From NCBI RefSeq assembly GCF_019468465.1, contig NZ_CP080519.1, positions 2,309,001-2,373,000 of the forward strand: a stretch of 64,000 bases of DNA, given 5' to 3'. Source of the stretch: Amycolatopsis sp. DSM 110486. Lineage in GTDB: Bacteria; Actinomycetota; Actinomycetes; Mycobacteriales; Pseudonocardiaceae. The position numbers and the translations under genes were made by a program. Position 1 is the first letter of the stretch. Each line of letters opens with the position of its first letter. Under the pieces are notes generated by a model, which did no database searches, was not told where the DNA came from, and was given only the letters and a program-made list of their open reading frames with translations. Below are positions 19,202 through 36,424 of this stretch, one piece after another.

Positions 19202-20599
19202 ATGAAGCACTGGATCAACGGCGAGGACGTCCCCGCCGAAACCACCCTCGACGTCGTCAACCCCGCCAACGGCACGGTCGTCGCCCACATGCCGCTCGGC
19301 ACCCCGGAAGACGTCGATCGCGCGGTCGCCGCGGCAACGAAGGCCCTGCCCGCGTGGGCCGCCACGTCACCGCAAGAACGCGCCAAAAGGCTCAAAGCGC
19401 TCGCCCACGAGCTCCGCGAACGCAACGAAGAGCTCGCCCAAGCCATCTCCACCGAGATCGGCGCCCCGATCAGCCTCGCCCGCGCCGCCCAGGCCGGTCT
19501 GCCGCCGCTCGTCGCGGACTCGACAGCGGACCTGGCGGCCGGCTTCGCGTGGACCGAAACCGTGGGTACCTCGCTCGTCGTACGCGAACCCGTCGGCGTC
19601 GTCGGCGTCATCACCCCGTGGAACTTCCCGCTCCAGCAGATCATGACCAAACTCGCCCCCGCACTGCTGGCGGGCAACACCGTCGTCGCCAAACCCGCCG
19701 AGCTCGCGCCGACGTCGATGCCGATCCTCGCCGCGGCCGTCAAAGCGGCCGAAATTCCCGACGGCGTCGTCAACATCGTCTACGGCACCGGCCCGGTCGT
19801 CGGCGAGGCCATCGCGAAACACCCCGGCATCGACATGGTCAGCTTCACCGGCTCCACCGCCGTCGGGAAGCGGATTTCGGTGCTGGCAGCCGAAACCGTC
19901 AAACGCGTGGCCCTCGAACTCGGCGGCAAATCCGCGAGTGTGGTCCTCGACGACGCCGACCTGCAGCTCGCCGTCGAGCGCACCCTCACCACCGCGTGGA
20001 CCAACTCCGGCCAGGTCTGCGGCGCGTGGTCCCGGATGATCGTCCCAGCGACCCGCCGCGACGAAATCCTCGACCGGCTCACGAAAGCGGCCGAGGACTA
20101 CCGCCTCGGCGACCCCAGCGAGGAGACCACCCGGCTCGGCCCGCTCGCGTCGGAAACCCAGTGGACTCGCGTCGACAACCATGTCGAACGCGGCCTCGAA
20201 CAAGGCGCCACTCTCGTCCTCGGCGGCCCCGGCCGCGTCCCCGGCCTCGAACACGGCGCCTACTTCCGCCCGACCATCCTCGCCGACGTCCACCCGGATT
20301 CCGCACTGGCGCAAGAAGAAATCTTCGGCCCCGTCCTCAGCGTCCTGACCTACACCGACGAAGACGAAGCCATCGCGATCGCCAACAACAGCGTCTACGG
20401 CCTCACCGGCGCCGTCTTCGGCGAACCCGCCCGCGCGCTCGCGATCGCGCGCCGGCTGCGCACAGGTCAGGTCGACGTCAACGAGGGCCAGTTCAACGTC
20501 CTCGCCCCCTTCGGCGGCTACAAGCAGTCCGGCAACGGCCGCGAGTTCGGCTACCTCGGCGTCGAGGAGTTCACGGAGGTCAAGTCAATCCAGCGGTGA
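19202..20599 (+). CDS. NAD(P)-dependent aldehyde dehydrogenase
   Basis: A 465-residue oxidoreductase oxidising an aldehyde to the acid. Catalytic Cys273 in NSGQVCGAW and general base Glu239 in LELGGKSA are both present with normal spacing. ITPWNFPLQQIMTK, SFTGSTAVGKRI (cofactor fold) and EEIFGPVLSV complete the family pattern. It is short by about 15-30 residues at the N-terminus compared with typical members, as in the actinobacterial MmyB-linked group. ATG at 19202 has only a weak ribosome binding site. It could detoxify an aldehyde under control of the divergent regulator; the substrate is unknown. Confidence 0.9.
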   Translation: MKHWINGEDVPAETTLDVVNPANGTVVAHMPLGTPEDVDRAVAAATKALPAWAATSPQERAKRLKALAHELRERNEELAQAISTEIGAPISLARAAQAGLPPLVADSTADLAAGFAWTETVGTSLVVREPVGVVGVITPWNFPLQQIMTKLAPALLAGNTVVAKPAELAPTSMPILAAAVKAAEIPDGVVNIVYGTGPVVGEAIAKHPGIDMVSFTGSTAVGKRISVLAAETVKRVALELGGKSASVVLDDADLQLAVERTLTTAWTNSGQVCGAWSRMIVPATRRDEILDRLTKAAEDYRLGDPSEETTRLGPLASETQWTRVDNHVERGLEQGATLVLGGPGRVPGLEHGAYFRPTILADVHPDSALAQEEIFGPVLSVLTYTDEDEAIAIANNSVYGLTGAVFGEPARALAIARRLRTGQVDVNEGQFNVLAPFGGYKQSGNGREFGYLGVEEFTEVKSIQR

Positions 20600-20617: not shown

Positions 20618-21223
20618 TCAGAACGTGGGCGGCGTGATCAGCCAGACCGCCTTGAGCGGTTCGCCTTCCCCGACGTGCCAACGGTGTGGCACCGTCGAGT
20701 CGAGGTAGATCGCGTCGCCCGCTTCGAGTTTCACCTCGTCGTCGCCGATCCAGAAGATCATCACGCCGGACAGCACGATGCCGCACTCCTCGCCGACGTG
20801 CGAATGCGGGTGCCCGCCGCTGGTCGCGCCCACGGGCGCCTCGACCCACACCACTTCCATCTGGTGCTGCAGATCGGGGCTGAGCAGCTCGTTCATGATC
20901 CCGGAGCCCGGGTACTGGATGCGTTTGCGCTGCCCGCTCTTGGAAACCGAGTACCGCAACGGATTCGCGGGCGGCGCCTCGTTGCTGAACAGCTCGCCGA
21001 CGGTGTGGCCGAGCACGTCGGCCAGCCGCTTCAGCGCTTCCAGCGACGGGTTCGCGCGCCCGCGCTCGACCTGGCTGATGTAGCCGACGGAAAGCCCGAC
21101 CGCCTCGGACACCTCCGTGAGCGTCGTCCGGCTCTCGTGGCGCCATTCGCGCAGCTTCGAGCCGATGTGCACGCCCTCCGAAGTGCTGCGCGGCTCGTCG
21201 GACTGCTCGGGGGGTGAGGCCAT
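20618..21223 (-). CDS. XRE-cupin transcriptional regulator
   Basis: A 201-residue regulator with an N-terminal helix-turn-helix (KLREWRHESRTTLTEVSEAVG then LSVGYISQVERGRANPS, about 23-62) and a C-terminal cupin (about 105-200) with GGHPHSHVGEECGIVLSG and DAIYLDSTVPHRW, the two metal-site motifs. Relatives such as PuuR sense small amines or acids through the cupin. AGGAG lies 7 bases before the ATG. It is divergent from the ABC importer operon with a repeated operator between them, so it probably controls that operon and itself. Ligand unknown, presumably the transported compound. Confidence 0.92.
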   Translation of the reverse strand: MASPPEQSDEPRSTSEGVHIGSKLREWRHESRTTLTEVSEAVGLSVGYISQVERGRANPSLEALKRLADVLGHTVGELFSNEAPPANPLRYSVSKSGQRKRIQYPGSGIMNELLSPDLQHQMEVVWVEAPVGATSGGHPHSHVGEECGIVLSGVMIFWIGDDEVKLEAGDAIYLDSTVPHRWHVGEGEPLKAVWLITPPTF

Positions 21224-21273: not shown

Positions 21274-21320
21274 GTGAAACGCCACTCTACAAGTTTTACC
21301 CTCAGTTCAACCAGTAAAAC
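21274..21320. promoter_or_regulatory. candidate operator cluster of the XRE-cupin regulator
   Basis: GTTTTAC (21293-21299) and GTAAAAC (21314-21320) are perfect inverted arms 14 bases apart. A related GTGAAAC is at 21274-21280, and a further GTAAAA at 21461-21466 overlaps the -10 of the operon promoter. The sites stand 19-21 bases apart, about two helical turns. The region is markedly AT-richer than the genes around it. Confidence 0.6.
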
Positions 21321-21438: not shown

Positions 21439-21467
21439 TTGACACTGGACTGAGTTGACAGTAAAAA
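21439..21467 (+). promoter_or_regulatory. sigma70-type promoter of the importer-catabolic operon
   Basis: TTGACA at 21439-21444 and TAAAAA at 21462-21467 are separated by 17 bases. Transcription would start near 21474, giving a leader of about 90 bases before the ATG at 21563. The -10 element contains the GTAAAA half operator, so a bound repressor would block polymerase. A second TTGACA at 21455-21460 overlaps this arrangement. Confidence 0.6.
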
Positions 21468-21562
21468 TCTGCACTCACAGTGCGCCTCCTGCGGATCTGG
21501 TCCCCGCCGCCGCCGGCGTCGTCGTCTCGAATCATCCGAACCAATGACGCGGAGGAATGATG

Positions 21563-22744
21563 ATGACTTTTCCCAGGCGGCCGCGAAAACTCGCGCTGGT
21601 GGCCGCCGTCGCCACCGCCGCCGCGGTGCTCACGGCCTGCGGCTCGAGCGGGTCGAGCAGCGACAGCATCAAGATCGGCGTGCAGTTCGGCCTCACCGGG
21701 GCCGACGCCGCGTTCGACGCGGTCTACCAGGACTCCGCCAAGCTCGCCTTCGCCGACCTGACCAAGAACGGCGTCAACGGCCACTCCGTCGAACTGCTCT
21801 ACGCCGACGACGCGAGCGACCCGGCGACCGCCGTCACGGTGGCGCGCAAGTACATCACGCAGGACAAGGTCTCGGTGCTCTACGGGCCCGCCTTCACGCC
21901 CACCGCGCTGTCGACCATGCAGGTCGCGAGCAGCACGAAAACCCCGTTCTACACACCGGGCAGCATCAACCCGCAGCTCACCTCGCCGCTCAACAAGTAC
22001 ACGTTCGCCCCGGCGTTCTCCTCCAACGACGTCGCCACCGGCATCGCGAAGCTCGTGAACTCCATGGGCGCCAAGAAGATCGGCATGATGGTGGAGTCCG
22101 ACGCGTACGGCGACGCCGCGCTGTCCGGCGCCAAGGACGCGCTCGCCAAGTACGGCCTCACCGTCGACTCGACGCAGAAGATCGCCGCCGACGCCACTGA
22201 CGCCACCAGCCAGGTGCAGGGACTGAAGGACGCCGGCGTCGACGCCGTGCTGCTCGGTATCACCGCGCCGCCGATGGCCGCGGTGATCAACGCCGAGATC
22301 CACCAGGCCACCTACCTGCCGCTGGTCACGTTCGCCGGGTCCAACACCTCGCTCGACCAGCTCGCGAAGTCGGACCCGAAGGTGCGTTACTACGCGCTGA
22401 CCCCGCTGGCGTGTCCCGTCGGGGACCCGTGCACGGCCGACTTCATGAAGGCGTGGAAGGCCGAGCACCCGACCACCGAGCCGATCGTGTGGACAGTGCA
22501 GGCCTACGCGGCGGCCAAGGCGTTCATCGCCGGGCTGCGCAACGCCAAGGACACCACCCCCGAAGGGCTGGTCACCGGCCTGGAGACGATGAAGCCGTTC
22601 TCGACGCCCGAGCTGCCGTGCCCCATCGCGTTCTCCACGACCTCGCACAAGGGCAACTCCTGCACCAACTTCTACGGCATCTCCGGCGGCAAGGTCTCGT
22701 TCTTCGGCAGCGACACGACCCAGAACCAGCTCACCGCGAACTGA
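21563..22744 (+). CDS. ABC transporter substrate-binding lipoprotein (branched-chain amino acid type)
   Basis: This extracellular binding protein of the LivJ family has a signal peptide ending in the lipobox LTAC, with the lipid-modified Cys near residue 26. A type-I periplasmic-binding fold follows: IKIGVQFGLTGADAAF at the first strand, DDASDPATAVTVARKYI, YGPAFTPTALS and the second-lobe GAKKIGMMVESDAYGDAAL. Three in-frame ATGs stand at 21557, 21560 and 21563; GGAGG at 21551-21555 best fits the third. Two cysteine pairs late in the protein (PLACPVGDPC and ELPC/NSC) are unusual and may form disulfides. Relatives bind amino acids, amides or aromatic acids; the linked enzymes suggest an organic acid. 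Confidence 0.9.
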   Translation: MTFPRRPRKLALVAAVATAAAVLTACGSSGSSSDSIKIGVQFGLTGADAAFDAVYQDSAKLAFADLTKNGVNGHSVELLYADDASDPATAVTVARKYITQDKVSVLYGPAFTPTALSTMQVASSTKTPFYTPGSINPQLTSPLNKYTFAPAFSSNDVATGIAKLVNSMGAKKIGMMVESDAYGDAALSGAKDALAKYGLTVDSTQKIAADATDATSQVQGLKDAGVDAVLLGITAPPMAAVINAEIHQATYLPLVTFAGSNTSLDQLAKSDPKVRYYALTPLACPVGDPCTADFMKAWKAEHPTTEPIVWTVQAYAAAKAFIAGLRNAKDTTPEGLVTGLETMKPFSTPELPCPIAFSTTSHKGNSCTNFYGISGGKVSFFGSDTTQNQLTAN

Positions 22745-22768
22745 CCTTGCCCCAGTGAGGACTGATCG

Positions 22769-23623
22769 ATGGTCACCACCGCCACTTTCGGCACCGGAAT
22801 CGTCAACGGATTCGCCCTAGCCCTCGTCTCACTCGGTTTCACGCTCGTCTACCGCGCCACCGGCGTGGTCAACTTCGCCAACGGCAGCCAGATGGTGCTC
22901 GGCGGCTACGTCGCGTGGGAGCTCGGCTCGCACGGGTTCCCCGCGTGGGTGGTCATGCTCGGCGCCGTCGCCGCGGGCGTCGCTTCGGGTGTGGTCGTCG
23001 ACCAGATCGCGTTGCGCCCCCTGCGCGGCGCGAGCCTGCTCGCCCAGATCATCGTGCTGATCGCGGTCACCGAGGTCGCCGGCGGGTTGTTCCTGTCGTC
23101 GTTCGGGGCCGAGGCCAAGACGATGACGCCTTACGCGGGCCGCTCGCCGATCGTGCCGGGACTCGGCTGGTCGGCGAGCGACGTGGTGCTCATGGTGGTG
23201 AGCCTCGTGCTCGTCGCCGGGCTCACGCTGGTGCTGCGTGGCACGTCGGCCGGCCTGCGGATGCGGCTGGTCGCGAGCAACCGCCTCGGCGCCACGGTCG
23301 TCGGCGTGAACCCGGCGCGGGTCTCCACGCTGGCGTGGTGCGTCGGCGGCGGCCTCGCGGCGCTGAGCGGCGCGCTGATCTTCCCGACCTACCTGCTGTC
23401 CCCGGACCTCGGGCAGCAGTACACGTTCGACAGCTTCGCCGCCGTGGTCCTCGGTGGGTTCGGCAGCCTGCCGGGCGCCGCCGTCGGCGGGGTGCTGATC
23501 GGGGTCGTGCAGTCGGTCGTGTCGGGGTCGATCGGGGCGAGCTACAGCGCCTTCGTGTCGCTCGGCGTGATGCTCGTGATCCTGCTGACGCGGCCCACCG
23601 GACTGTTCGGAGCACGCGCATGA
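22769..23623 (+). CDS. branched-chain-type ABC transporter permease (LivH family)
   Basis: A 284-residue inner-membrane permease with about eight helices. It has the LivH opening GIVNGFALALVSLGFTLVYRATGVVNFANGSQMVLGGY, and late EAA-like coupling around RLVASNRLGATVVGVNPARV. VVLGGFGSLPGAAVGGVLIGV is the typical penultimate helix. A GAGGAC precedes ATG 22769, 24 bases after the binding-protein stop, and the stop overlaps the next permease start by ATGA. It forms the membrane channel with the following gene. Confidence 0.92.
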   Translation: MVTTATFGTGIVNGFALALVSLGFTLVYRATGVVNFANGSQMVLGGYVAWELGSHGFPAWVVMLGAVAAGVASGVVVDQIALRPLRGASLLAQIIVLIAVTEVAGGLFLSSFGAEAKTMTPYAGRSPIVPGLGWSASDVVLMVVSLVLVAGLTLVLRGTSAGLRMRLVASNRLGATVVGVNPARVSTLAWCVGGGLAALSGALIFPTYLLSPDLGQQYTFDSFAAVVLGGFGSLPGAAVGGVLIGVVQSVVSGSIGASYSAFVSLGVMLVILLTRPTGLFGARA

Positions 23624-24657
23624 CCACTGTCAATGTCCCCCGCCGAGTGCGGGCCGCCGTCCGCGATTCCGCGCTGCCGGTGGAGAAGTGGCTCGGCCGG
23701 TTGCGCGTGCCGACGCCCAGCACGGTGACGTCGCCGGCCGGCGAGAAGCGCTACGTCGGTTCGCTGTGGACCACGGCCGGGGTCGTGCTCGTCGCGGTGG
23801 TCGTCGCCGTGTGGGCCGACGTCGGCGGCGGCTACATCCAGACCGTGGTGGGCCTGTTCGCCGCGTACCTGGTGTCCGCGCTCGGGTACACGGTCGTGCT
23901 CGGGCAGGCGGGGCAGTTCGCCTTCTGCCAGAACGCGTTCATGGCGTTGGGCGCCTACGGGTACGCGGTTTCCGAGCCTCGCTTCGGTCCGGTCGGCGGA
24001 CTGATCGTCGGCGCCGTGGCCGCGACCGTGGCGGGCACCATCATCGGAGTCGCCATCATCCGCACCCGCGATCTGTACCTGGCGCTGCTCACGCTCGCGT
24101 TCTCCCAGGCCGCGCTGCTCGCGATCCAGCTGTGGCCACCCACGCAAGGCGACAATGGGATCCTCGTCGACCTCGGCGGCGATCAGGCCTACCTCGTCGC
24201 CGTGGTGTTCGCGGCGGTCGCGCTGATCGTGGTGCAGCGCATGACGCGCTCGAAGATCGGCCGCGCGTTCGCCCTCGTGCGCACCGACGAGAAGGCCGCC
24301 GCGACGATGGGCGTGAACGTGCCGCTCACGCGGATGCTGGCGTTCGCGTTCAGCAGCCTGCTCGGCGGGCTCGGCGGCGTGCTGCTGGGCGCGGTCCTCA
24401 CGTTCATCACGCCGACGAACTTCACGCTCGAGCTGACGTTGCTGTTGCTCACGATGATCGTGATCGGCGGCGTCGGGAGCGTGTGGGGCACGGTCACGGG
24501 TGTGCTGATCATGGTGGTGGTGCAGCAGTTCCTGCCCAGCAGCGGGAGTTTCGGCAGCTACCTCAACGCGGGCCTGCTGTTCGTGATCCTCGTGCTGCGG
24601 CCCGGTGGGCTGCGCTCGCTGGTGAACCTGCGCTCGTCGGGCGGCAGCCGTGGCTGA
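23620..24657 (+). CDS. branched-chain-type ABC transporter permease (LivM family)
   Basis: A 345-residue permease that pairs with the LivH-type protein. A basic N-terminal tail of about 65 residues precedes the first helix. ALGYTVVLGQAGQFAFCQNAFMALGAY is the LivM signature, and the cytoplasmic coupling loop is at SKIGRAFALVRTDEKAAATMGVNV. VIGGVGSVWGTVTGVL is typical of the late helices. ATG 23620 overlaps the LivH stop by 4 bases; the LivG start overlaps this gene's end by 8 bases, indicating coupled translation. Confidence 0.92.
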   Translation: MTTVNVPRRVRAAVRDSALPVEKWLGRLRVPTPSTVTSPAGEKRYVGSLWTTAGVVLVAVVVAVWADVGGGYIQTVVGLFAAYLVSALGYTVVLGQAGQFAFCQNAFMALGAYGYAVSEPRFGPVGGLIVGAVAATVAGTIIGVAIIRTRDLYLALLTLAFSQAALLAIQLWPPTQGDNGILVDLGGDQAYLVAVVFAAVALIVVQRMTRSKIGRAFALVRTDEKAAATMGVNVPLTRMLAFAFSSLLGGLGGVLLGAVLTFITPTNFTLELTLLLLTMIVIGGVGSVWGTVTGVLIMVVVQQFLPSSGSFGSYLNAGLLFVILVLRPGGLRSLVNLRSSGGSRG

Positions 24658-25444
24658 CGCGATCCTCGATCTCGACTCCGTATTCGTCCGCTTCGGCGGG
24701 CTGGTCGCGGTGGGCGGTGTGAGCTTCTCCGTGGAGCGCGGCTCGGTCACCGGGCTGGTCGGACCCAACGGCGCGGGCAAGACCACGCTGTTCAACGCGA
24801 TCAGCGGCCTGGTCCCCGTGACCGGGGGCGCGATCAACTTGCGGACCACGCGGGGCTCCGCCGACTTGACAGGCGTGGGTGCGTGGCGGCGGGCCGGGCT
24901 GGGCATCGGGCGCACCTTCCAGGACTCGCGGCTCGTGGCCGGCCTGCCGGTGCTCGACCAGCTGGCCACCGGCGCGTTCGCGGGGCGCAGCCGGTTCCTC
25001 GGCGCCGTGCTCCGCGGCCGCAGCTTCCTGGCCGACGAGAGGCAACTTGTCGACCGGGCCCACGAAGTGTTCGCGCAGCTGAAGATCGAGCACCAGGCCG
25101 CGGTGAACGTCGACCTGCTCTCGGCGCCCGAACGGCGGCTGGTGGACCTCGGCCGCGCGCTGATGAGCCGGCCGGAGCTCCTGCTGCTCGACGAGATCAG
25201 TGCCGGAATGCCCGTGGAGGACAAGGAAATGGTGGCCGACCGCGTGCTCGACTACGTCCGGTCCTCGGGCGCGACGGTGATCTTCGTCGAGCACGACATG
25301 GGCTTCGTCCGGCGGGTCGCCGACCGCACGGTGGTGCTGGCCGAGGGCGAGATCCTCGCCGACGGCGGCCCGGAAGAGGTGCTGCGGCGCCCGGACGTGC
25401 TCGCCGCCTACATCGGCCCCGGAGCCGAAGGAGCACTGCGATGA
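24650..25444 (+). CDS. ABC transporter ATP-binding protein (LivG family, degenerate signature)
   Basis: A 264-residue ATPase. Walker A is GPNGAGKTTLFNA near residue 38, the LivG-specific IGRTFQDSRL follows at the Q-loop, and Walker B is LLLLDEISAGM with the switch histidine in FVEHDMGFV. The signature motif, normally LSxGx, reads LLSAPERRL here: the two glycines that contact ATP are lost. The Walker B stretch also has IS where P-A/T is usual. Since LivG pairs with LivF, whose signature is intact, one of the two ATP sites may be non-hydrolytic. GTG start at 24650 within the LivM gene end. Confidence 0.9.
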   Translation: MADAILDLDSVFVRFGGLVAVGGVSFSVERGSVTGLVGPNGAGKTTLFNAISGLVPVTGGAINLRTTRGSADLTGVGAWRRAGLGIGRTFQDSRLVAGLPVLDQLATGAFAGRSRFLGAVLRGRSFLADERQLVDRAHEVFAQLKIEHQAAVNVDLLSAPERRLVDLGRALMSRPELLLLDEISAGMPVEDKEMVADRVLDYVRSSGATVIFVEHDMGFVRRVADRTVVLAEGEILADGGPEEVLRRPDVLAAYIGPGAEGALR

Positions 25445-26145
25445 CGTTCTCCGCGCAGGGAATCCACGCCGGTTACGGGCGGATCCCGGTGGTGCACGAC
25501 CTCGGCTTCGAGGTCGCCGCGGGTGGGTACCTCGGCATCGTCGGCGCCAACGGCGCGGGCAAGAGCACGCTGCTCAAGGCCTTGTCCGGCGTGGTCACGC
25601 CGCACGCCGGGACCATCCGGCTCGGCGACGAAGACCTCACCGGTGTGCCGGCGTGGGACCGGGCCCGCCGCGGGCTCGCGTTCGTCCCCGAGTCGCGCGA
25701 GCTCTTCGGCGAGCTGACCGTGGAAGAGCACTTGCATGCGGGTTGCCTGCAGGTGCGGGGCCGGGCGAAGCGCACGGAACGGACCGACTTCGCGTACGAG
25801 CTCTTTCCCGTGCTGCGCGACCTGCGCCGCCGCACGGCCGGCCGGCTTTCCGGTGGCCAGCAGCAGTCGCTGGCCGTTGCGCGGGCCGTGGTGTCCCAGC
25901 CGAGGGTGCTGCTGCTCGACGAACCCTCCCTCGGCCTGTCCCCGATCGCGGTCAGCGGGCTCGTCGAGTCACTGACCCGGCTCGCGCGTACCACGGACAT
26001 GGCCGTGGTCATCGCCGAGCAGAGCCTCACGGTCGTGCGGGAGCTGTGCGACGACGTGCTGGTGCTCAACCTCGGCCGCGAGGTCGAGCGGGGCCCGGCC
26101 GCCGCGGTGCTCACCCGCTCGGTCATCGAGAACGCGTTCCTGTGA
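25441..26145 (+). CDS. ABC transporter ATP-binding protein (LivF family)
   Basis: A 234-residue ATPase with Walker A GANGAGKSTLLKALSG, the LivF-typical RGLAFVPESRELFGELTVEEH, intact signature RLSGGQQQSLAVARA, Walker B LLLDEPSLGLSP and a switch position with Glu-Gln (VIAEQS), as usual in LivF. It completes the five-gene importer: one binding protein, two permeases, two ATPases. ATG 25441 overlaps the LivG stop. The next gene, an enolase-superfamily enzyme, starts 25 bases after, so uptake and metabolism are on one transcript. Confidence 0.92.
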   Translation: MTFSAQGIHAGYGRIPVVHDLGFEVAAGGYLGIVGANGAGKSTLLKALSGVVTPHAGTIRLGDEDLTGVPAWDRARRGLAFVPESRELFGELTVEEHLHAGCLQVRGRAKRTERTDFAYELFPVLRDLRRRTAGRLSGGQQQSLAVARAVVSQPRVLLLDEPSLGLSPIAVSGLVESLTRLARTTDMAVVIAEQSLTVVRELCDDVLVLNLGREVERGPAAAVLTRSVIENAFL

Positions 26146-26170
26146 AAACTCCCCCGGAGGTGTGCGACAG

Positions 26171-27292
26171 GTGACAACCAGCAAGATCTCCTCGATCGAC
26201 GTCATCCCGTTCCGGATTCCCCTGAAACACGAGGTGAAGTTCGCGACGGGCCGGCTGACCCACGCCGAGCACCTGCTGGTGCGCGTGCGCACGGCCGACG
26301 GTGTCGTCGGCCTGGCCGAGGCCATCCCCCGGCCGATGATCTACGGCGAGACCACCGTGTCGATCGCGCACGTGATCGACACGATGATCGCGCCGGCCGC
26401 GCAGTCGCTCGACCTGCTCGGCACCGAAGAGCTCGGCCACCGGCTGCGCCACCTCGCCGGCAACCCGACCGCCCGCGGCGCGGTGGAGCTGGCGATGTTC
26501 GACGCGCTGGGCAAGACGCTCGGCGTGTCCTGCCACGACCTGCTCGGCGGCTACGCACCGGAGGTCCGTTGCACCGCGATCCTCGGCGCGGGCACGATCG
26601 ACGAGGTCGTGGCCGAGACCGCGGCACTGCGCGCGGAACACGGCATCACCAGCTACAAGGTCAAGGTCGGCCTGGACCTCGACCGTGACGTGCGACTGGT
26701 CGCTCAGCTGCGCCAGGAGCACCCCGACGCGTTGATCTACGTCGATGCCAACCACGGTTACTCCGCGGCCGACGCGATGACCTTTCTGGGGTCCACAAAG
26801 GACCATCGGCTCGCGTGGATCGAAGAGCCGTGCCCGGCCGAGGACGTGCTCGGGCGCGCCGACGTGGTCGCCAAGACGACCGTGCCCGTGCTCGGCGACG
26901 AGAGCTGCACGACGCCGCGTGAGGTCGCCACCGAGATCCTGGCCCGGCGCTGCACGATGATCAGCATCAAGCTGGCCCGTACGGGAATTCGCGCGTCCAC
27001 GCGGATCCGCGAGTTCTGCGCGGCCGTCGGCGCGCAGGCGATCGTGGGCAGCCAGGGCGACTCGGCGATCGGCACGTACACCAGCGCCGCGTTCGCCGCC
27101 GCCAGCCCCGTGACCGCGCAGCATCCGGCCGAGCTGGCCTACCTGCTCAACTTAGACGGCGACCTCGTGGTCACCCCGCCCGAAATCCGGGACGGCGTGC
27201 TGCGGGTGCCCGCCGAACCCGGCTTCGGGTTCGAGATCGACGAAGCCGCACTGGCGCGTTTCCGGACCGACCGGCCCGGGGAAAGGAGCTGA
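26171..27292 (+). CDS. enolase-superfamily enzyme, muconate cycloisomerase subgroup
   Basis: It probably abstracts a proton alpha to a carboxylate, as muconate-lactonising and related enzymes do. The 373-residue protein has the capping domain (1-about 125) and a barrel with Lys163 and Lys165 (YKVKVG), metal ligands Asp192 (DANHG), Glu218 (WIEEP) and Asp243 (LGDES), and Lys267 (SIKLARTG) on the opposite face. This two-lysine arrangement defines the muconate cycloisomerase subgroup, which also includes dipeptide epimerases and o-succinylbenzoate synthases, so the reaction is uncertain. GTG 26171 is 10 bases from GGAGG; GTG 26162 is too close. The maleylacetate-reductase-like neighbour favours a muconate-type route. 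Confidence 0.82.
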   Translation: MTTSKISSIDVIPFRIPLKHEVKFATGRLTHAEHLLVRVRTADGVVGLAEAIPRPMIYGETTVSIAHVIDTMIAPAAQSLDLLGTEELGHRLRHLAGNPTARGAVELAMFDALGKTLGVSCHDLLGGYAPEVRCTAILGAGTIDEVVAETAALRAEHGITSYKVKVGLDLDRDVRLVAQLRQEHPDALIYVDANHGYSAADAMTFLGSTKDHRLAWIEEPCPAEDVLGRADVVAKTTVPVLGDESCTTPREVATEILARRCTMISIKLARTGIRASTRIREFCAAVGAQAIVGSQGDSAIGTYTSAAFAAASPVTAQHPAELAYLLNLDGDLVVTPPEIRDGVLRVPAEPGFGFEIDEAALARFRTDRPGERS

Positions 27293-27297
27293 ACCGC

Positions 27298-28479
27298 GTG
27301 TTCCGTTACGACCAGGCAAGGCAGGTGCTCACCGTGGGGGCCGGCACGATCGCGACGGTGCCGGACGAGCTCACCGCTCTGTCCGCCCGTTCGGTGTGCC
27401 TCGTCGGCAGCCCGCGTTCACTCGCGTCGGCCGCCGGGCAGGCGACGCGCGAAGCGTTGCGCGGCTTCGACGTCCGGCACGAGTTCGGCAAGATCGCGCC
27501 GCACGCGCCGATCACCGACACCGAGGCGATGGCGCGGCAGCTGCGCGACGACCCGCCCGACGCGCTGGTGGCCGTCGGCGGCGGCAGCGTGAGCGACACC
27601 GCGAAAGCGCTTTCCATCCTGCTGGCCGAAGGCTTTCCGCTCGAGGCCAAGTGCAGCACGTTCACACCACCCGACGTGTTGAAGCACGTGCAGCTCAACC
27701 AGCCGAAGATCCCCGTGCTCACCATCCCGACGACGTTGTCGGGCGCGGAAGTCACGCCTGGCGGCGGCGCGACGGACGCTCGCGGCATCAAGCGCGTGTT
27801 CTGGGACCAGAAGGTCGCCTCGCGGGTGGTGGTGTACGACCCCGAACTGTTCACCGACGTCCCGGCCGAGCTGCTCCTGACCACCGGCATGAACGGGCTC
27901 GCCCACTGCGCCGAAGCCCTGTACTCCAAGTCCGCGTCGCCGTTCACGGACGCGCTGGCGGCCGAAGGCGCGCGGCGGTTCGCCGAGACGTTGCCCCTGA
28001 TCGGCGGCGCGACCGGACGGCTGCCCGTCGACCTGCTGGAGGACGCGCTCACCGCCGCGGCCATCGGCGGCCTGGTCATCAGCAACGCGCGGGTCGGCCT
28101 GCACCACGCCGTCTGCCACGTGCTCGGCGCCGCGTACGGCGTGCCGCACGGGGTCGCGAACTCCGTGATGCTGCCGTACGTCCTCGAGTACAACCACGAT
28201 CACACCGAGGCCAAGCAGGCGATCCTGGCCCGCGCACTCGGCGAAGGGCTCGGAGAGACGGGCAGCGCGGCGGTGCTGGCCGCGACCGTGCAGCGGCGCG
28301 CCGGCGTGCCGCGGACGCTGGCGGACACCGGCCTCGCCGAGTCCGACCTGGAGCGGGTGGCCGGGGAAGTCTTGCAGGACCGTGGTTTGTTCTTCAACCC
28401 CAAGCGAGTCCCCGACGCCGGTGCGGTGCTGGGCGTGCTGCGGCGCGCGTGGACCGGCACCGTGACCGGGGCCGCGTGA
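27298..28479 (+). CDS. iron-containing dehydrogenase, maleylacetate reductase-like
   Basis: A 393-residue member of the Fe-alcohol dehydrogenase/maleylacetate reductase fold. The N-terminal domain has VGAGTIATVPDEL and the nucleotide loop GGGSVSDTAKAL. The C-terminal domain has the metal histidines in HCAEALYS, GLHHAVCHVLG and GVPHG. PTTLSGAEVTPGGGATDARGIK closely follows the maleylacetate reductase pattern (TTLSGAEVT). Those enzymes reduce maleylacetate to 3-oxoadipate in chlorocatechol and resorcinol degradation. GTG start 27298 with AGGAG upstream. It overlaps the following synthetase gene by 1 base (TGATG). Confidence 0.85.
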   Translation: MFRYDQARQVLTVGAGTIATVPDELTALSARSVCLVGSPRSLASAAGQATREALRGFDVRHEFGKIAPHAPITDTEAMARQLRDDPPDALVAVGGGSVSDTAKALSILLAEGFPLEAKCSTFTPPDVLKHVQLNQPKIPVLTIPTTLSGAEVTPGGGATDARGIKRVFWDQKVASRVVVYDPELFTDVPAELLLTTGMNGLAHCAEALYSKSASPFTDALAAEGARRFAETLPLIGGATGRLPVDLLEDALTAAAIGGLVISNARVGLHHAVCHVLGAAYGVPHGVANSVMLPYVLEYNHDHTEAKQAILARALGEGLGETGSAAVLAATVQRRAGVPRTLADTGLAESDLERVAGEVLQDRGLFFNPKRVPDAGAVLGVLRRAWTGTVTGAA

Positions 28480-30527
28480 TGGCGGAGCTCGCCACCGGGA
28501 GCGCGCTCGTCGACCTCGTCACCGCGCCCCGCAGTGTGGTCGTCGTCGGCGCGTCGGCCGACCCGGCCAAGCCCGCGGGCCGGCCGCTGGCCTACCTCAG
28601 CCGCTACGGGTTCACGGGCGACGTGTTCGTCGTCAACCCACGACACTCCGTCGTCGGCGGTTACCCGGCGGTGCCGGCCGTGCTCGACCTCCCCGTCGAC
28701 GCGGCCGAGGCCGCCATCGTCAACCTGCCCGCCGACCAAGTGCCGAGCGCGTTGCACGACCTCGACAGCCGCGGTGTGCGGGTCGCGGTCGTGATCGGCA
28801 GCGGCTTCGAGCGCCCGGACAGCGCGCCGCGCCAGGAGCTCAACCGGTTCCTGGCCTCGCCCGACCGGCGGCTGCGTGTGATCGGCCCCAACTGCGTGGG
28901 CACGATGAGCGTGGTTTCCGGCGCGCACCTGAACTTCTCGAGCGTGCTCGGCCGCGGCCCGGCGCGCGCGGGTTCGGTCGCGATGATCACGCAGAGCGGC
29001 GCGAGCGGCAACGGGCTGCTCATGTCGATCCTGCGCCGTGGCGGCGGCATCGCGCACTGGTTCAGCACCGGGGACGAGTTCGACGTCGGCGCCCTCGAAT
29101 TGCTCGTCGGCGTCCTGGCCCGCGACGACGTGCGCACGGTCGGGCTGTTCCTCGAAGCCATCACCGACCTCGACTGGCTGCCCGTGGCGACGGAAGCCAT
29201 CGCGCGTACCGGGAAACGGGTGTTCCTGGTCAAGATCGCCGACAGCGACCTCGGACAGCTCGCCGCCGGCGGGCACACCGGGCGGGTGGTCGGGTCCAGC
29301 GACATCTCGCACGCGGTGCTGAAGCAGGCCGGGTTCGTGCGGGTGCCGGGGATCGCCGAGCTGGCCGACTGCCTGGTGACCGCGCAGGTCGTCGGTGAGC
29401 TGCCCGCGCGGCCGCGGATCGCCGCGGCGTCGGTGTCGGGAGCGGGGGCGGTGGTGCTGGCCGACCGCGTGCAGCAGGCTCCGGCGTTGTCGCTGCCGGC
29501 GTTGGGTACGGCGACGCGGCGGCAGCTGCAGGAAGTGCTGGCCGATCGGGTCGAGCTGCACAACCCCATGGACGTGCCGTTCCTCGGCGAGACCGAGACG
29601 TTCGCACGGACCGTGGCCACGTTGTCCGAAGCGCCGGAATCGGACGTCGTCGTGGCGGTCGAATCGAGCCTCGCGCACGATCGTGAGGTGCTGACCGAGG
29701 TCCTCACCGCCCGGTCCCCCACCGCGAGCCCCGTCGTGCTGAGTCACCTCAGCGAGGACGACCCGATCCCGGAAGCCCTCCTCGCGCGGCTCGCCGCGGC
29801 CCGGGTGGCCGTGGTCCCGACGCCGGAACGGGCGGTGCAAGCGCTGGGCCTGCTCGCGGGTGACGCGGGTGCGCAAGCCGCGGCCGAACCTGCCGAAGAC
29901 CTGACCGGGTACCTCGGCCTGCCGGACATCGCCGCCTTGCTCCCCGCGGATTTCCCCTGGGCGCCTTGGGTTTCCGCACCCGACCGGGAGGCCGCGGCGG
30001 AGGCGGCGAGACGCTGGGGCTACCCCGTCGCGGTCAAGGCGGCCGGGCAGACGATCGCGCACCGGTCCGAGCTCGGCGCCGTCGCGGTGGTGCGCGCCGA
30101 GGACGACCTGACGGCAGCGTACGAGCGGGTCGCGAAGGTGTGCGCCGAACACGGCGACGACGTCGTGGTGCAGCAAGGCGTCGGCGCGGGGCAGGAAGTG
30201 CTGGTGGCCGTGGTGCGCGACCCGGAGTACGGCCTGTCCGCCGTGCTCCGGCCGGGTGGCGTCAACGCCGAGCTGCTCGACGATCAGGTCGTGCTCTGGC
30301 ACGGCTGGCCCGCCGGGCAACGGCTGGCGACGCTGCGTGAGTCCCGGCTCGGCGTGCTCCTGTCCGGCTACCGCGGCCAGACGGCGAGTGACGTCGAGGC
30401 ACTCAACACCGCGATCACCACCTTGTTCACGGCGCTGGCCGACCAGCCGGTGTCCTTTGTGGAACTCAACCCCGTGCTCGTGCTGGCGGACGGGGTCCGC
30501 GCGATCGACGCGATCGGGCGGAAATGA
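28479..30527 (+). CDS. ADP-forming acyl-CoA synthetase (acetyl-CoA synthetase type, fused alpha-beta)
   Basis: A 682-residue fusion that converts an acid, CoA and ATP to acyl-CoA, ADP and phosphate. Order: CoA-binding Rossmann domain (about 15-140, VVVVGASADPAKPAGRPL), succinyl-CoA-synthetase-like domain (about 145-290) with Gly-rich TQSGASG and the phosphorylated-type histidine His266 in AAGGHTG, a third flavodoxin-like domain (about 295-440), then an ATP-grasp domain (about 480-682; YPVAVKAAG, VVVQQGVGAGQE, VELNPVLV). Relatives include pimeloyl-CoA and feruloyl-CoA synthetases. Here it could activate the ring-cleavage acid produced by its neighbours. Confidence 0.88.
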   Translation: MAELATGSALVDLVTAPRSVVVVGASADPAKPAGRPLAYLSRYGFTGDVFVVNPRHSVVGGYPAVPAVLDLPVDAAEAAIVNLPADQVPSALHDLDSRGVRVAVVIGSGFERPDSAPRQELNRFLASPDRRLRVIGPNCVGTMSVVSGAHLNFSSVLGRGPARAGSVAMITQSGASGNGLLMSILRRGGGIAHWFSTGDEFDVGALELLVGVLARDDVRTVGLFLEAITDLDWLPVATEAIARTGKRVFLVKIADSDLGQLAAGGHTGRVVGSSDISHAVLKQAGFVRVPGIAELADCLVTAQVVGELPARPRIAAASVSGAGAVVLADRVQQAPALSLPALGTATRRQLQEVLADRVELHNPMDVPFLGETETFARTVATLSEAPESDVVVAVESSLAHDREVLTEVLTARSPTASPVVLSHLSEDDPIPEALLARLAAARVAVVPTPERAVQALGLLAGDAGAQAAAEPAEDLTGYLGLPDIAALLPADFPWAPWVSAPDREAAAEAARRWGYPVAVKAAGQTIAHRSELGAVAVVRAEDDLTAAYERVAKVCAEHGDDVVVQQGVGAGQEVLVAVVRDPEYGLSAVLRPGGVNAELLDDQVVLWHGWPAGQRLATLRESRLGVLLSGYRGQTASDVEALNTAITTLFTALADQPVSFVELNPVLVLADGVRAIDAIGRK

Positions 30528-30544
30528 AGGCTGAAGGGAAGAGC

Positions 30545-30946
30545 ATGACCGCACAAGACAGGTTGCAGCACTACCAGGAGTCGCTGGGCAACATCCCGCC
30601 CGCCATCTCGACGATGTTCGCGATGGACGAGGGGTTCGCCGGCGACTACACCGACATCCGCGAGCGGATCTACACCCAGCACGCCGACGGGCTCTCGCTC
30701 GCGATGAAGGAGCTGCTGCTGGTCATGTTCGACCTGGCCGTGAGCAACGCCGGCGGCGCGATCAACCACCTGCGCGCGGCCAAGCGGGCCGGGCTCACCG
30801 GTGAGCAGCTGCGCGAGTCGCTGCAGATCGCGTTCCTCGTGCTGGGCGTGTCGGGCTGGGGCAAGGTCGGCTACAAGCTGTGGGCGGCCTGGGAGAACGA
30901 CTTCGAGGAAGAGGGGGCGAGCACCAATGGCCACCACGCGTCTTGA
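30545..30946 (+). CDS. carboxymuconolactone decarboxylase-family protein
   Basis: A 133-residue all-helical protein of the CMD/AhpD family. The core is MKELLLVMFDLAVSNAGGAINHLRAAKRAGLTGEQLRESLQI, the conserved helix pair. The CxxC of AhpD-type peroxidases is replaced (SNAG), so a redox role is unlikely; a lactone decarboxylase or lyase role suits the muconate-type context. ATG 30545 follows AAGGGAAGAG; an in-frame ATG at 30524 overlaps the preceding stop but has no ribosome binding site. The end overlaps the next gene by 20 bases. The true CMD catalytic residues cannot be verified by eye. Confidence 0.75.
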   Translation: MTAQDRLQHYQESLGNIPPAISTMFAMDEGFAGDYTDIRERIYTQHADGLSLAMKELLLVMFDLAVSNAGGAINHLRAAKRAGLTGEQLRESLQIAFLVLGVSGWGKVGYKLWAAWENDFEEEGASTNGHHAS

Positions 30947-32051
30947 GTTCAGCACCGAGATCACTGACGAGATGCTGTCGGAGGCGGCAGCGCTCGAAGG
31001 CCAGGAGATCCGCGTCGAGCCGTGGAACAACGAGGCGACGCTGGACACCATCCGCCACTACGCCTGGGGGCTCGGCGACCACAACCCGCTGTTCCACGAC
31101 GAGCAGTACGCGGCGACGAGCCCGCACGGCGGTGTGATCGCCCCGCCGACCTTCCTGTACTCCAGCTACGACGGCGCCGTCGGCCTCGGTTTCCCCGGCG
31201 TGCAGCCGATCTACGCGGGCACCGAGTGGGTGTTCCACGAGACGATCCACCGCGGCGACCGGATCCTGCCGAAGGCGCGGCTGGGGAAGGTGACCGTCCA
31301 CAGTGGCCGCCACGCCGACCGGTTCGCGATCCAGCGCGTGCACACCGAGTACCGCCGCGAGAGCGACGGGGTGCTGCTGGCCGAGGCGCTGGCCAGCACG
31401 TTCCGCGTGCCGCGCGCCGCGGCGTCGGGCGGGTTGTCGTACAAGGCCCGCGACCGGCACGTCTACCGCGACGAGGAGCTGGAGGAGATCCGCCGCTGGG
31501 CGATCACGGAGGCACGTCGGGGCACGGCGCCACGCAACCCGGCCGAGGTCCAGGTCGGTGACGTGGTGCCCGAGGTCGTGAAGGGCCCGATCGACCAGAT
31601 CACCATGACGGCGTACTACGCCGGCTGCATCGGCTCGCCCGGCTACAAGGCGGGCGAGATCTCGTGGCTGTACCGCACGTGGGCCGTCGAGGAGCCGGAG
31701 CGGCTGCCGAACAACTACGACCCCACGTACTTCAGCGAGCGCGTGCTGCCCAGCCTCGGACACCAGGACCCCGAGGTGGCCAAGGAGATCGGCATGCCCG
31801 GCGCGTACAACAACGGCCCGCAGAAGTGCGGCTGGATGGCGCACCCCGTGCTGAACTGGATGGGTGACGCCGGTTCGCTGCGGGAGTTCTCCGTGCGCCT
31901 GCGCCGCCCCGACATCTTCGGCGACACCGTCTGGTGTGGCGGCAAGGTGACCGAGGTGCGGGACAACGGTGACGTGCTCATCGCGTTGTCCGCACGCAAC
32001 CAGCTCGGCGAGCAGACCGCAGAGGGCAGCGCCCTGGTGCGCTTGAGCTGA
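30927..32051 (+). CDS. double-hotdog MaoC-like acyl-CoA hydratase/dehydratase
   Basis: A 374-residue protein with two hotdog domains. The N-terminal one (about 10-160) contains YAWGLGDHNPLFHDEQYA and GVIAPPTFL, matching the hydratase-2 active-site Asp-His pattern, and the C-terminal one (about 200-374) is less conserved (GPIDQITMTAYYAGC, PGAYNNGPQKCGWMAHPVLNW). Relatives hydrate or dehydrate CoA thioesters such as mesaconyl-CoA or enoyl-CoA. Directly following an acyl-CoA synthetase, it probably acts on that CoA ester. It is the last gene of the operon, followed by a 15-bp-stem terminator. Confidence 0.8.
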   Translation: MATTRLEFSTEITDEMLSEAAALEGQEIRVEPWNNEATLDTIRHYAWGLGDHNPLFHDEQYAATSPHGGVIAPPTFLYSSYDGAVGLGFPGVQPIYAGTEWVFHETIHRGDRILPKARLGKVTVHSGRHADRFAIQRVHTEYRRESDGVLLAEALASTFRVPRAAASGGLSYKARDRHVYRDEELEEIRRWAITEARRGTAPRNPAEVQVGDVVPEVVKGPIDQITMTAYYAGCIGSPGYKAGEISWLYRTWAVEEPERLPNNYDPTYFSERVLPSLGHQDPEVAKEIGMPGAYNNGPQKCGWMAHPVLNWMGDAGSLREFSVRLRRPDIFGDTVWCGGKVTEVRDNGDVLIALSARNQLGEQTAEGSALVRLS

Positions 32052-33480: not shown

Positions 33481-34059
33481 TCACCGACCGAGCGAGGCCA
33501 GGGCGCGCCGGTGTTCGATCAGGTCGACCAGGCCGTCGACCACGGCGGTGAGGATCGGCAGCGACGGCGAACCCACCGGCAGCTCGCCGTCGGCGAGGGC
33601 CTGGTGGGCGTGGGGCAGCACGAACTCGGGCTGGCCCACCACGTCGGCGTTCATCTTGTGCAGCACCGAGCGCAGGTTCAGCTGTGCGCGAATGGTGCCC
33701 AGCGGCCCTTGCGAAGCGCCGATGATCGCGACGGGCTTGCGTTCCAGCACCGGACCTTCGTCCACGGGACGGGAAAGCCAGTCCAGCCCGTTCTTGAGCA
33801 CACCGGGCATGGCCGCGTTGTACTCCGGGGTGGCGATGAGCACCCCGTCGGCCGCGCGGATCCGGCGTCGCAGCTGCGCGACGGCGGGCGGGGCCGGGTG
33901 TTCGTCGTCCTCGTTGAACGGCGGGATCGCCGCCAGGTCACCGAAGACGTCGAAGGTGAGCTCGGGCGGCGCGAGCTGCGTGACCGCCGTGAGCAGGCGC
34001 GTGTTGAGGGACTCCTTGCGCAGGCTTCCCGACAGCGCGAGGATCGTCAAGTCCGACAA
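33481..34059 (-). CDS. NADPH-dependent FMN reductase
   Basis: A 192-residue flavodoxin-like reductase. The FMN phosphate loop is LSGSLRKESLNTRLL (residues 9-23), the second flavin loop is ATPEYNAAMPGVLKNGLDWLSRP and GASQGPLGTIRAQ is the third. The family reduces FMN, quinones or azo compounds with NADPH. It lies 13 bases downstream of the tryptophan-dioxygenase-like gene and is co-directional, so it belongs to the operon; it might keep dioxygenase metal or haem reduced, or reduce a nitro or quinone intermediate. Which one cannot be told from sequence. Confidence 0.88.
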   Translation of the reverse strand: MSDLTILALSGSLRKESLNTRLLTAVTQLAPPELTFDVFGDLAAIPPFNEDDEHPAPPAVAQLRRRIRAADGVLIATPEYNAAMPGVLKNGLDWLSRPVDEGPVLERKPVAIIGASQGPLGTIRAQLNLRSVLHKMNADVVGQPEFVLPHAHQALADGELPVGSPSLPILTAVVDGLVDLIEHRRALASLGR

Positions 34060-34072
34060 GGGTTTTCTCCAG

Positions 34073-35889: not shown

Positions 35890-36419
35890 CAGAGCGCGGA
35901 CCTTCCGGGGTGCACCGTGCCGCAGTTGGCGCACTTGCGCAGGGACTCGTCGTTGTAGAACTGCTCGAATACCGGCGGCAGGTCCTCGACGATGTCACGC
36001 ACCTGCAGTTCGACCTCGTGCACGAGGTGCTCGCAGTTGAGGCAGTACCATTGGAACTTCTCCAGCGTGCCCTCTTCGCGGACGCGCTCGATCACGACAC
36101 CGATCGAGCCGGCCTCGGGACGCTGCGGCGAATGCGGCACATTGCCGGGCAGCAGCCACATGTCGCCCTCGCGCACGTGGACCGTCTGCTGGCCCTTGTC
36201 GGACATGACGTTGACGTGCATGTTGCCCTTGACCTGGTAGAACCACTCCTCGTACGGGTCGACGTGGAAGTCGGTCCGCTGGTTGGGCCCGCCGACGACC
36301 TGCACGATGAAGTCGCCCGTGCGTTCCCACATCTGCTTGTTGTTGACCGGCGGCTTGAGCAGGTGCTGGTGTTCGGAGACCCACGCGGCGAAGTTGAAGA
36401 CGGGATTGATGTCGGTCAC
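35889..36419 (-). CDS. nbaC: 3-hydroxyanthranilate 3,4-dioxygenase
   Basis: A 176-residue cupin that opens the ring of 3-hydroxyanthranilate with O2. The Fe(II) ligands His52, Glu58 and His96 and the substrate arginines Arg48 and Arg100 are in place, each one residue later than in the Cupriavidus enzyme. The C-terminus keeps the rubredoxin-like second iron site of bacterial enzymes with CLNC and CANC. GTG 36419 is set 9 bases after AAGGAA. It sits between the deaminase and decarboxylase genes, and its product is the decarboxylase substrate. Confidence 0.94.
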   Translation of the reverse strand: MTDINPVFNFAAWVSEHQHLLKPPVNNKQMWERTGDFIVQVVGGPNQRTDFHVDPYEEWFYQVKGNMHVNVMSDKGQQTVHVREGDMWLLPGNVPHSPQRPEAGSIGVVIERVREEGTLEKFQWYCLNCEHLVHEVELQVRDIVEDLPPVFEQFYNDESLRKCANCGTVHPGRSAL

Positions 36420-36424
36420 GGTGA

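What the first reader, a model, noticed from the sequence alone, without database searches (positions are those of the whole stretch)
21563..32051. Ten-gene operon joining a Liv-type importer to a muconate-cycloisomerase/maleylacetate-reductase/ADP-acyl-CoA-synthetase set
Seen: ten same-strand genes with gaps of 25 bases or fewer, many overlapping, behind one strong promoter. The enzymes are an MLE-subgroup enolase (Lys163, Lys165, Asp192, Glu218, Asp243, Lys267), a maleylacetate-reductase-like dehydrogenase, an ADP-forming acyl-CoA synthetase, a CMD-family protein and a MaoC-type hydratase. Known: MLE and MAR work in muconate/chloromuconate routes that normally end with a CoA transferase and thiolase. 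Inference: an unusual pathway in which an imported unsaturated acid is cyclised or isomerised, reduced, activated by the ADP-forming ligase and hydrated. No dioxygenase, dienelactone hydrolase or thiolase is present, so the substrate probably arrives already non-aromatic. I know no described pathway with this set.
Basis: partly seen in the sequence, partly recalled or inferred. Interest (0 to 1): 0.8.

Follow-up and report, generated by a model that had tools for sequence, protein, structure and literature searches.

The report
Uncharacterised CoA-dependent muconate-like acid operon
A rare but conserved ten-gene bacterial operon appears to import an unusual non-aromatic acid and break it down through coenzyme A, using a relative of the ring-fragment enzyme muconate cycloisomerase, in a combination whose pathway is not known.

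Summary
Ten same-strand genes (21557-32051) encode a five-part Liv-type importer, a muconate-cycloisomerase-like enolase (MLE), a maleylacetate-reductase-like dehydrogenase, an ADP-forming acyl-CoA synthetase (ACS), a distant CMD-family protein and a two-domain MaoC-like protein. The genus is Amycolatopsis. I add a divergent XRE-cupin regulator and an operator-like site found in the control region of all four complete copies. The whole order recurs in one other Amycolatopsis (86-95%) and two Subtercola MAGs (58-72%); a third Amycolatopsis has lost 10.2 kb of it.

The MLE lies apart from CatB enzymes of catechol operons (99/98), and the same genome keeps a separate catB-catA-catC set, so plain muconate is an unlikely substrate. 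The dehydrogenase carries the Asn that marks metal-free maleylacetate reductases, but other features differ. ACS-MaoC also occurs without MLE.

Best reading (inferred, 0.35): scavenging of a substituted muconate- or muconolactone-like acid by lactone/acid interconversion, reduction, CoA activation and CoA-level (de)hydration. Substrate and order of steps are not shown. My full-text searches found no described operon of this composition. New variant of a known kind; interest 0.5.

The parts
20618..21172 (-). Divergent XRE-cupin regulator (HTH + Cupin_2, 184 aa), 384 bases upstream of the operon
   Evidence: Pfam HTH_31/HTH_3/Cupin_2; conserved next to the operon in L039, L024, L025; a 51% relative near ACS-MaoC in L080
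21294..21304 (+). Operator-like site TTTTACCCTCA (1 mismatch), left arm of an inverted repeat TTTTAC-14-GTAAAA (21294-21319)
   Evidence: only 2 hits of TTTTACNGTCA (up to 1 mismatch) in 64 kb, both in this control region; 0.34 expected
21456..21466 (-). Operator-like site TTTTACTGTCA (exact), overlapping the promoter's -10 region
   Evidence: the same motif in the control regions of L024, L025 and L039
21439..21468 (+). Promoter-like site, TTGACA then 18 bases then AAAAAT
   Evidence: 10 of 12; a similar arrangement can be read by eye in the L024 and L025 intergenic DNA printed
21557..22744 (+). Substrate-binding lipoprotein of a Liv/HAAT importer
   Evidence: Peripla_BP_6 1.3e-51; LTAC lipobox visible in the translation
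22769..23623 (+). LivH-type permease
   Evidence: BPD_transp_2 2.5e-35
23620..24657 (+). LivM-type permease
   Evidence: BPD_transp_2 3.3e-34
24650..25444 (+). LivG-type ATPase
   Evidence: ABC_tran, LivG model 1.1e-48
25441..26145 (+). LivF-type ATPase
   Evidence: ABC_tran, UrtE and LivF models
26162..27292 (+). Muconate-cycloisomerase-like enolase (MLE subgroup)
27298..28479 (+). Iron-ADH-family dehydrogenase, maleylacetate-reductase-like in part
   Evidence: Fe-ADH; best solved relative 3jzd, 1e-41, closely followed by non-MAR dehydrogenases; Asn at the metal-Asp position in 4 of 4 operon copies
28476..30527 (+). ADP-forming acyl-CoA synthetase, fused alpha-beta type
   Evidence: CoA_binding_2, Succ_CoA_lig, ATP-grasp_5; H267 invariant in 42 of 42 and aligned with the His stretch of 8wzu and DddX 7cm9
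30524..30946 (+). CMD-family-like protein, 140 aa, no Cys, conserved His
   Evidence: CMD 1.4e-4, 22.3 bits against cut-off 23; 2qeu 2e-14; alignment of five proteins
30927..32051 (+). Two-domain MaoC/FAS1_DH-like protein

Best explanation
A substrate-inducible catabolic operon, switched by the divergent XRE-cupin protein acting on TTTTACYGTCA sites, that scavenges a non-aromatic, probably substituted, muconate- or muconolactone-like acid (for example a methylmuconolactone, known to be left over by aromatic degraders). Steps: (1) the Liv-type importer takes up the acid; (2) the MLE interconverts unsaturated acid and gamma-lactone through a Mg-bound enediolate; (3) the probably metal-free MAR-like dehydrogenase reduces a conjugated C=C (or C=O) with NAD(P)H; (4) the ADP-forming synthetase makes the CoA thioester through a phospho-histidine; (5) the MaoC-like and CMD-like proteins work on that thioester (hydration/dehydration, possibly isomerisation or decarboxylation), and general thiolases or lyases elsewhere finish it. 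Shown: gene content, conserved order, conserved regulator and operator-like sites, and family membership on which steps 1, 2 and 4 rest. Inferred: substrate, direction of the MLE reaction, order of steps, role of the CMD-like protein, and that the sites are bound by the regulator.
For: Whole ten-gene order plus regulator in G091 (85.5-95.1% identity) and in Subtercola L024 and L025 (57.6-72.5%). ACS, MLE and MaoC relatives share longest-contig lengths 9 (ACS-MLE), 15 (ACS-MaoC) and 9 (MLE-MaoC) times; a rough control gives 0.08 and 0.2 for the first two, not computed for the third. MLE nearest to the M. smegmatis muconolactone-bound enzyme 3dg6, catalytic residues invariant, yet outside the CatB clade (99/98), while catB-catA-catC exists separately in the same genome (L041). 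The dehydrogenase has the D-to-N change that a review links to metal-free maleylacetate reductases (PMC5125639, passages). Methylmuconolactones are described as dead-end products in most strains, and the enzymes that use 2-methylmuconolactone were called unknown in 2014 (PMC4321380, passages). Operator-like sites: window 2 of 2, L025 1 of 1, L039 2 of 2 and L024 3 of 4 lie in the control region.
Against: No direct evidence for any substrate. That the changed residues (I52, S294, G296, Y324) line the pocket is recalled from MLE structures, not tested, and part of the change is not special: L027, L029 and L026 also read SQGDS in the rows printed. No muconolactone isomerase, enol-lactonase or thiolase in the operon. 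ACS-MaoC occurs without MLE in L080, so the core chemistry does not need a muconate-like acid. The CMD-like protein falls under the Pfam cut-off. The dehydrogenase scores almost equally with non-MAR enzymes. The binding protein's PDB relatives give no ligand. Conserved order could also reflect transfer of the block as a unit.
Confidence: 0.35

Rival explanations
1. The MLE is a racemase, epimerase or dehydratase for another imported acid (for example an acylated amino acid or hydroxy acid); the dehydrogenase then oxidises or reduces it, and ACS-MaoC takes it into beta-oxidation.
Against: Muconate and chloromuconate enzymes hold the top 13 fold rows, the best NCBIfam model is muconate cycloisomerase, and the PRPxxYGE stretch is shared with catB rows.
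Confidence: 0.25
2. The core substrate is a short branched unsaturated dicarboxylate (itaconate/mesaconate/aconitate type): ACS and MaoC make and hydrate its CoA ester, and a CoA-ester lyase elsewhere cleaves it; MLE and the dehydrogenase only feed it.
Confidence: 0.2
3. The operon is the lower branch of the adjacent tryptophan/3-hydroxyanthranilate operon (33481-41840, - strand) and takes an aminomuconate-type product.
For: The neighbour encodes tryptophan-2,3-dioxygenase-like and 3-hydroxyanthranilate dioxygenase steps, and the pairing is kept in G091 and, beside the truncated operon, in G028.
Against: That neighbour already has its own semialdehyde dehydrogenase, hydratase-type proteins, aldolase and acetaldehyde dehydrogenase; none of its genes except aldehyde-dehydrogenase paralogues was hit in the Subtercola loci; and G028 keeps the eight of its genes that lie in L040 after losing most of this operon.
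Confidence: 0.05

Closest known systems
Catechol branch of the beta-ketoadipate pathway (catB-catA-catC) of Actinobacteria
   Same: MLE fold, catalytic residues and PRPxxYGE stretch shared with CatB
   Different: No catA, catC, enol-lactonase, CoA transferase or thiolase among the ten genes; MLE in another clade; importer, ACS, CMD-like and MaoC-like genes instead; catBAC is separate in the same genome
Methylmuconolactone (mml) pathway of Proteobacteria (PMC6449761, passages read)
   Same: Deals with products beyond ring cleavage; possible substrate class
   Different: mml uses isomerases MmlI/J, hydrolase MmlL, CoA transferase MmlFG, thiolase MmlC and a LysR regulator; the families found here include none of these by name. 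mml sequences were not compared
3-Methylmuconolactone-CoA synthetase route of Rhodococcus rhodochrous N75 (Cha et al. 1998; recalled, paper not held)
   Same: As recalled: a muconolactone is activated with CoA before the ring opens, in an actinomycete
   Different: As recalled, its synthetase has 62-kDa subunits; here the enzyme is a 683-aa ADP-forming type. No sequence comparison was possible
ADP-forming acyl-CoA synthetases: 4-hydroxybutyryl-CoA synthetase (8wzu), DddX DMSP lyase (7cm9)
   Same: Domain content, His stretch and ATP-grasp domain
   Different: Distant in sequence (profile hits), another operon context, substrate unknown
MaoC-CMD-AMP-ligase module on a Variovorax sp. PBL-E5 plasmid (L048)
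   Same: MaoC (46%) and CMD-like (40%) genes adjacent, beside a CoA-ligase-type gene and solute-binding proteins
   Different: AMP-forming ligase family, tripartite-tricarboxylate binding proteins, no MLE and no iron-ADH gene among the annotated neighbours; no function is given there
ACS-MaoC locus with XRE-cupin gene in L080 (contig length equal to that listed for Sciscionella marina)
   Same: XRE-cupin 51%, ACS 44%, MaoC 56%
   Different: No MLE, MAR-like, CMD-like or Liv hit in the 20 kb read; P450, Zn-ADHs, acetoacetate-CoA ligase, CaiB proteins, AMP ligases and ALDH instead

Membership tests
   K163, K165, D192, E218, D243, K267 invariant in 39 of 39
Muconate cycloisomerase (CatB) | Groups with enzymes encoded in catA/catC operons | tested here: not met
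   12 catB rows and 39 A1 rows fall on separate sides, 99/98; 27 of 78 rows belong to neither group
Muconate cycloisomerase (CatB) | NCBIfam TIGR02534 cut-off 334.95 bits | tested here: inconclusive
   172.6 bits, but three CatB controls from catA/catC loci also fail with 196-203
Muconate cycloisomerase (CatB) | Converts cis,cis-muconate to muconolactone | not testable with these tools
   Needs an enzyme assay
Maleylacetate reductase (MAR) | Asp metal ligand replaced by Asn or Arg (PMC5125639) | tested here: met
   GMN(G/A)LAH in 4 of 4 operon copies
Maleylacetate reductase (MAR) | PHAETH stretch as in 3jzd | tested here: not met
   PHGVAN in the window protein and in 4 of 4 operon copies
Maleylacetate reductase (MAR) | Membership of cd08177 | not tested
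   No CDD library here; best solved relative 3jzd (1e-41) is placed in the MAR subfamily by PMC5125639, but 9ldl (5.9e-40) and methanol dehydrogenases follow closely
ADP-forming acyl-CoA synthetase (ACD superfamily) | CoA-binding, ligase and ATP-grasp domains | tested here: met
   CoA_binding_2, Succ_CoA_lig and ATP-grasp_5 over cut-off
ADP-forming acyl-CoA synthetase (ACD superfamily) | Phosphorylated His on the swinging loop (His292 in DddX, PMC8163506) | tested here: met
   H267 invariant in 42 of 42; aligned to a His in 8wzu and 7cm9. Phosphorylation itself not tested
Carboxymuconolactone decarboxylase (PF02627) | Score over Pfam's cut-off (23 bits) | tested here: not met
   22.3 bits
Carboxymuconolactone decarboxylase (PF02627) | Relative among solved structures named as CMD | tested here: met
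   2qeu, 2e-14; its name is putative
MaoC / hydratase 2 | Double hot-dog fold | tested here: met
MaoC / hydratase 2 | Asp-His pair in GDxNPxH (motif recalled) | tested here: not met
   F, Y or W in the His slot in 7 of 7 compared proteins; D51, N53 and another His, H279, invariant in 49 of 49
Liv/HAAT ABC importer | Binding protein, two permeases, two ATPases together | tested here: met
Beta-ketoadipate or mml pathway operon | Isomerase, enol-lactonase, CoA transferase and thiolase in the cluster | tested here: not met
   No such family among the ten genes

The most novel reading that the evidence does not exclude
A so far undescribed CoA-dependent route for scavenging substituted muconolactones and muconates, long treated as dead-end products of ring cleavage: dedicated uptake, lactone/acid interconversion by a non-CatB cycloisomerase, metal-free reduction, ADP-forming CoA activation of the lactone or acid, and a MaoC-CMD pair working on the CoA ester.
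Probability: 0.25. Interest if true: 0.75.

Novelty: new variant of a known kind. Interest (0 to 1): 0.5.

Why it matters
If the reading is right it would give genes for the use of ring-fragment acids that many aromatic degraders leave behind, and a clear test set (muconates, muconolactones, enelactones). Even if the substrate is different, it defines a muconate-cycloisomerase clade outside the catechol pathway, an ACS-MaoC core that recurs with an XRE-cupin gene, a candidate operator, and a natural deletion strain (G028) for comparison.

Tried and rejected
Chance clustering: rejected, same order in three further genomes. Close orthologue of CatB: rejected by the tree and by the separate catBAC set. 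Part of the tryptophan operon: unlikely. Plasmid-borne copies: no ACS match at 1e-60 in the plasmid collection; the nearest MLE there is 42% (5 records), and the three of the five that I read lie beside cat genes. Substrate from PDB relatives of the binding protein: no clear ligand. Literature, full-text searches: searches were aimed at this gene set and returned 0, 2, 1 and 0 papers, none of them on such an operon by title and abstract; some searches were on single enzymes or methylmuconolactones. Context of the MLE in named genomes was limited to one genome-contig scan (12 loci).

Distribution, counted per search: MLE at 1e-60 in 14 of 60 relatives, own included, with no match outside the own operon over 43%; ACS in 3 of 80 Amycolatopsis (own included, one truncated) and 1 of 394 class genomes (own); MaoC in 1 of 396 phylum genomes (own), 2 of 230 family genomes (own and G1171), 0 of 128 (genus of L034's genome), 0 of 354 (family of L029's genome). 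These searches score only some first-look candidates per genome, and the tool warns that, with no positive control, show nothing by themselves. MLE profile in the family of L024's genome: 10 of 249; of these G851 is the operon itself, five others were read (four beside catA/catC, one type II), four were not. I looked by a motif for an NSAR-type paralogue in the same genome, to compare pocket residues, and found none in 14 of the 20 MLE-family places; a comparison of G296 with the engineered I293G of PDB 5fjp (title seen) would rest on a recalled alignment and was left out.

Rows dropped before counts: A1 holds 38 of 120 listed MLE hits plus the window, A2 41 of 87 ACS hits plus the window, A3 48 of 120 listed MaoC hits plus the window. 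One search left out four A1 rows that branch apart (P0039, P0042, P0043, P0045). One search used 75 of 87 ACS rows, the first 52 of 120 listed MLE rows and 119 of 120 listed MaoC rows.


Full report
Setting. The window lies in an 11-Mb, two-contig genome. The closest named protein relatives, 91-98% identical, come from Amycolatopsis.

The operon is real. Searches give ten + strand genes from 21557 to 32051; gaps are 24, 16 and 5 bases and six junctions overlap. The CMD-like protein scores 22.3 bits, just under Pfam's 23, and its closest solved relative is 2qeu, a putative CMD. The MaoC-like protein has a FAS1_DH region and a MaoC stretch.

Regulation. A divergent XRE-cupin gene lies at 20618-21172. 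The pattern TTTTACNGTCA with up to one mismatch occurs twice in 64 kb, at 21294 and 21456, both in the 384-base control region (0.34 expected; 5 of 100 shuffles reach two). In other loci: L039 2 hits, both in the control region; L025 1 hit, in it; L024 4 hits, 3 in it; L080, L040 and L048 have 0, 0 and 1 hits. Means in base-shuffled controls were 0.44, 0.44 and 0.05 for L024, L025 and L039. The exact site at 21456 overlaps the -10 part of the best promoter-like site. That the regulator binds there is inferred.

Conservation. tblastn of the window's genes finds the full order, regulator included, in G091 (L039, 85.5-95.1% identity; its contig length, equals that listed for Amycolatopsis sp. FDAARGOS 1241) and in two Subtercola MAGs, L024 and L025 (57.6-72.5%). 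G028 (L040) keeps the MaoC-like gene, the CMD-like gene and 431 codons of ACS; by blastn its DNA runs from window position 29235 straight to 19011, a 10.2-kb loss. The operon is rare: counts are in Tried and rejected. In the protein searches, ACS, MLE and MaoC relatives share longest-contig lengths 9, 15 and 9 times (ACS-MLE, ACS-MaoC, MLE-MaoC); a rough jitter control gives 0.08 and 0.2 for the first two. This is a proxy, since one contig length per cluster is listed. Conserved order across genera fits selection for linkage, but transfer as a block is not excluded.

The dehydrogenase. Best solved relative 3jzd at 1e-41, with 9ldl (5.9e-40) and methanol dehydrogenases close behind; the best NCBIfam model is lactaldehyde reductase, 150.8 bits against a cut-off of 523.15. 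A review places 3jzd among maleylacetate reductases and says that these work without metal, perhaps because the Asp ligand became Asn or Arg (PMC5125639, passages). The window protein, G091, L024, L025 and a 39% Hydrogenophaga relative all have Asn there. The PHGVAN stretch is not of the 3jzd type. I call it MAR-like, not MAR.

The synthetase. CoA-binding, ligase and ATP-grasp domains in one chain; H267 invariant in 42 of 42, aligned to the His stretch of 8wzu and 7cm9. For DddX (7cm9) the paper argues that His292 is phosphorylated (PMC8163506, passages).

Wider MLE contexts. L027, L028 and L029 have an MLE with a CoA transferase downstream. In L029 (Micromonospora) and L027/L076 (one genome, Pseudolysinimonas) the genes between are Lyase_1, MaoC, SDR and Zn-ADH, with thiolase matches after. 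L034 (Nocardia) has a 30% ACS, SDR, MLE, enoyl-CoA hydratase, thiolase, CoA transferase and MaoC. MLE relatives thus sit in CoA-type operons of at least three kinds.

Interpretation. What I change: the MLE should not be called muconate cycloisomerase, hydration is plausible rather than shown, and the core of the system seems to be ACS-MaoC. A scavenger of substituted muconolactones or muconates fits the importer, the absence of ring-cleaving enzymes and the divergence from CatB; methylmuconolactones are described as dead ends in most strains, and the 2014 paper calls the enzymes for 2-methylmuconolactone unknown (PMC4321380, passages). A CoA synthetase for 3-methylmuconolactone in R. rhodochrous N75 is recalled, not read. 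Confidence 0.35, with the rivals listed.

Noticed in passing
window 33481-41840 (-), LysR 41991-42902 (+): Tryptophan/3-hydroxyanthranilate meta-cleavage operon: FMN reductase-like, Trp 2,3-dioxygenase-like, amidohydrolase (ACMSD-like by place; name inferred), 3-HAA dioxygenase, RidA-like, two FAA-type proteins, 4-hydroxy-2-oxovalerate aldolase, acetaldehyde dehydrogenase, hydroxymuconic-semialdehyde dehydrogenase.
   Followed up: partly
L040 around 10527 (G028): Natural 10.2-kb deletion removes the XRE-cupin gene, importer, MLE, dehydrogenase and the first part of ACS, with both flanks about 95% identical to the window.
   Followed up: yes
L027, L028, L029, L076: A second type of MLE operon (MLE, Lyase_1, MaoC, SDR, Zn-ADH, CaiB, thiolase); L029 also has an Asp/Glu-racemase-family gene, L027 an MmgE/PrpD gene; L028 only partly annotated.
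   Followed up: partly
L080: XRE-cupin, ACS and MaoC beside P450, Zn-ADHs, acetoacetate-CoA ligase, two CaiB proteins, AMP ligases and ALDH.
   Followed up: partly
L054 7007-11305: Rhodococcus rhodochrous plasmid: CatB-like MLE next to an enol-lactonase, an AMP-binding protein and a citryl-CoA-lyase-named gene; a possible home for a lactone-CoA synthetase (the idea is inference).
   Followed up: no
window 15765-16532 (+): Gene for an NPP1 (necrosis-inducing protein) family member, Pfam 2.4e-55.
   Followed up: no
window 45778-47214 (-): HpaB-type 4-hydroxyphenylacetate 3-hydroxylase family gene.
   Followed up: no
window 19202-20599 (+): Aldehyde dehydrogenase converging on the XRE-cupin gene; below the cut-off of each of the 25 NCBIfam models shown. 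Whether it belongs to the pathway is open; a partial ALDH match (52%) lies at the start of L024.
   Followed up: partly
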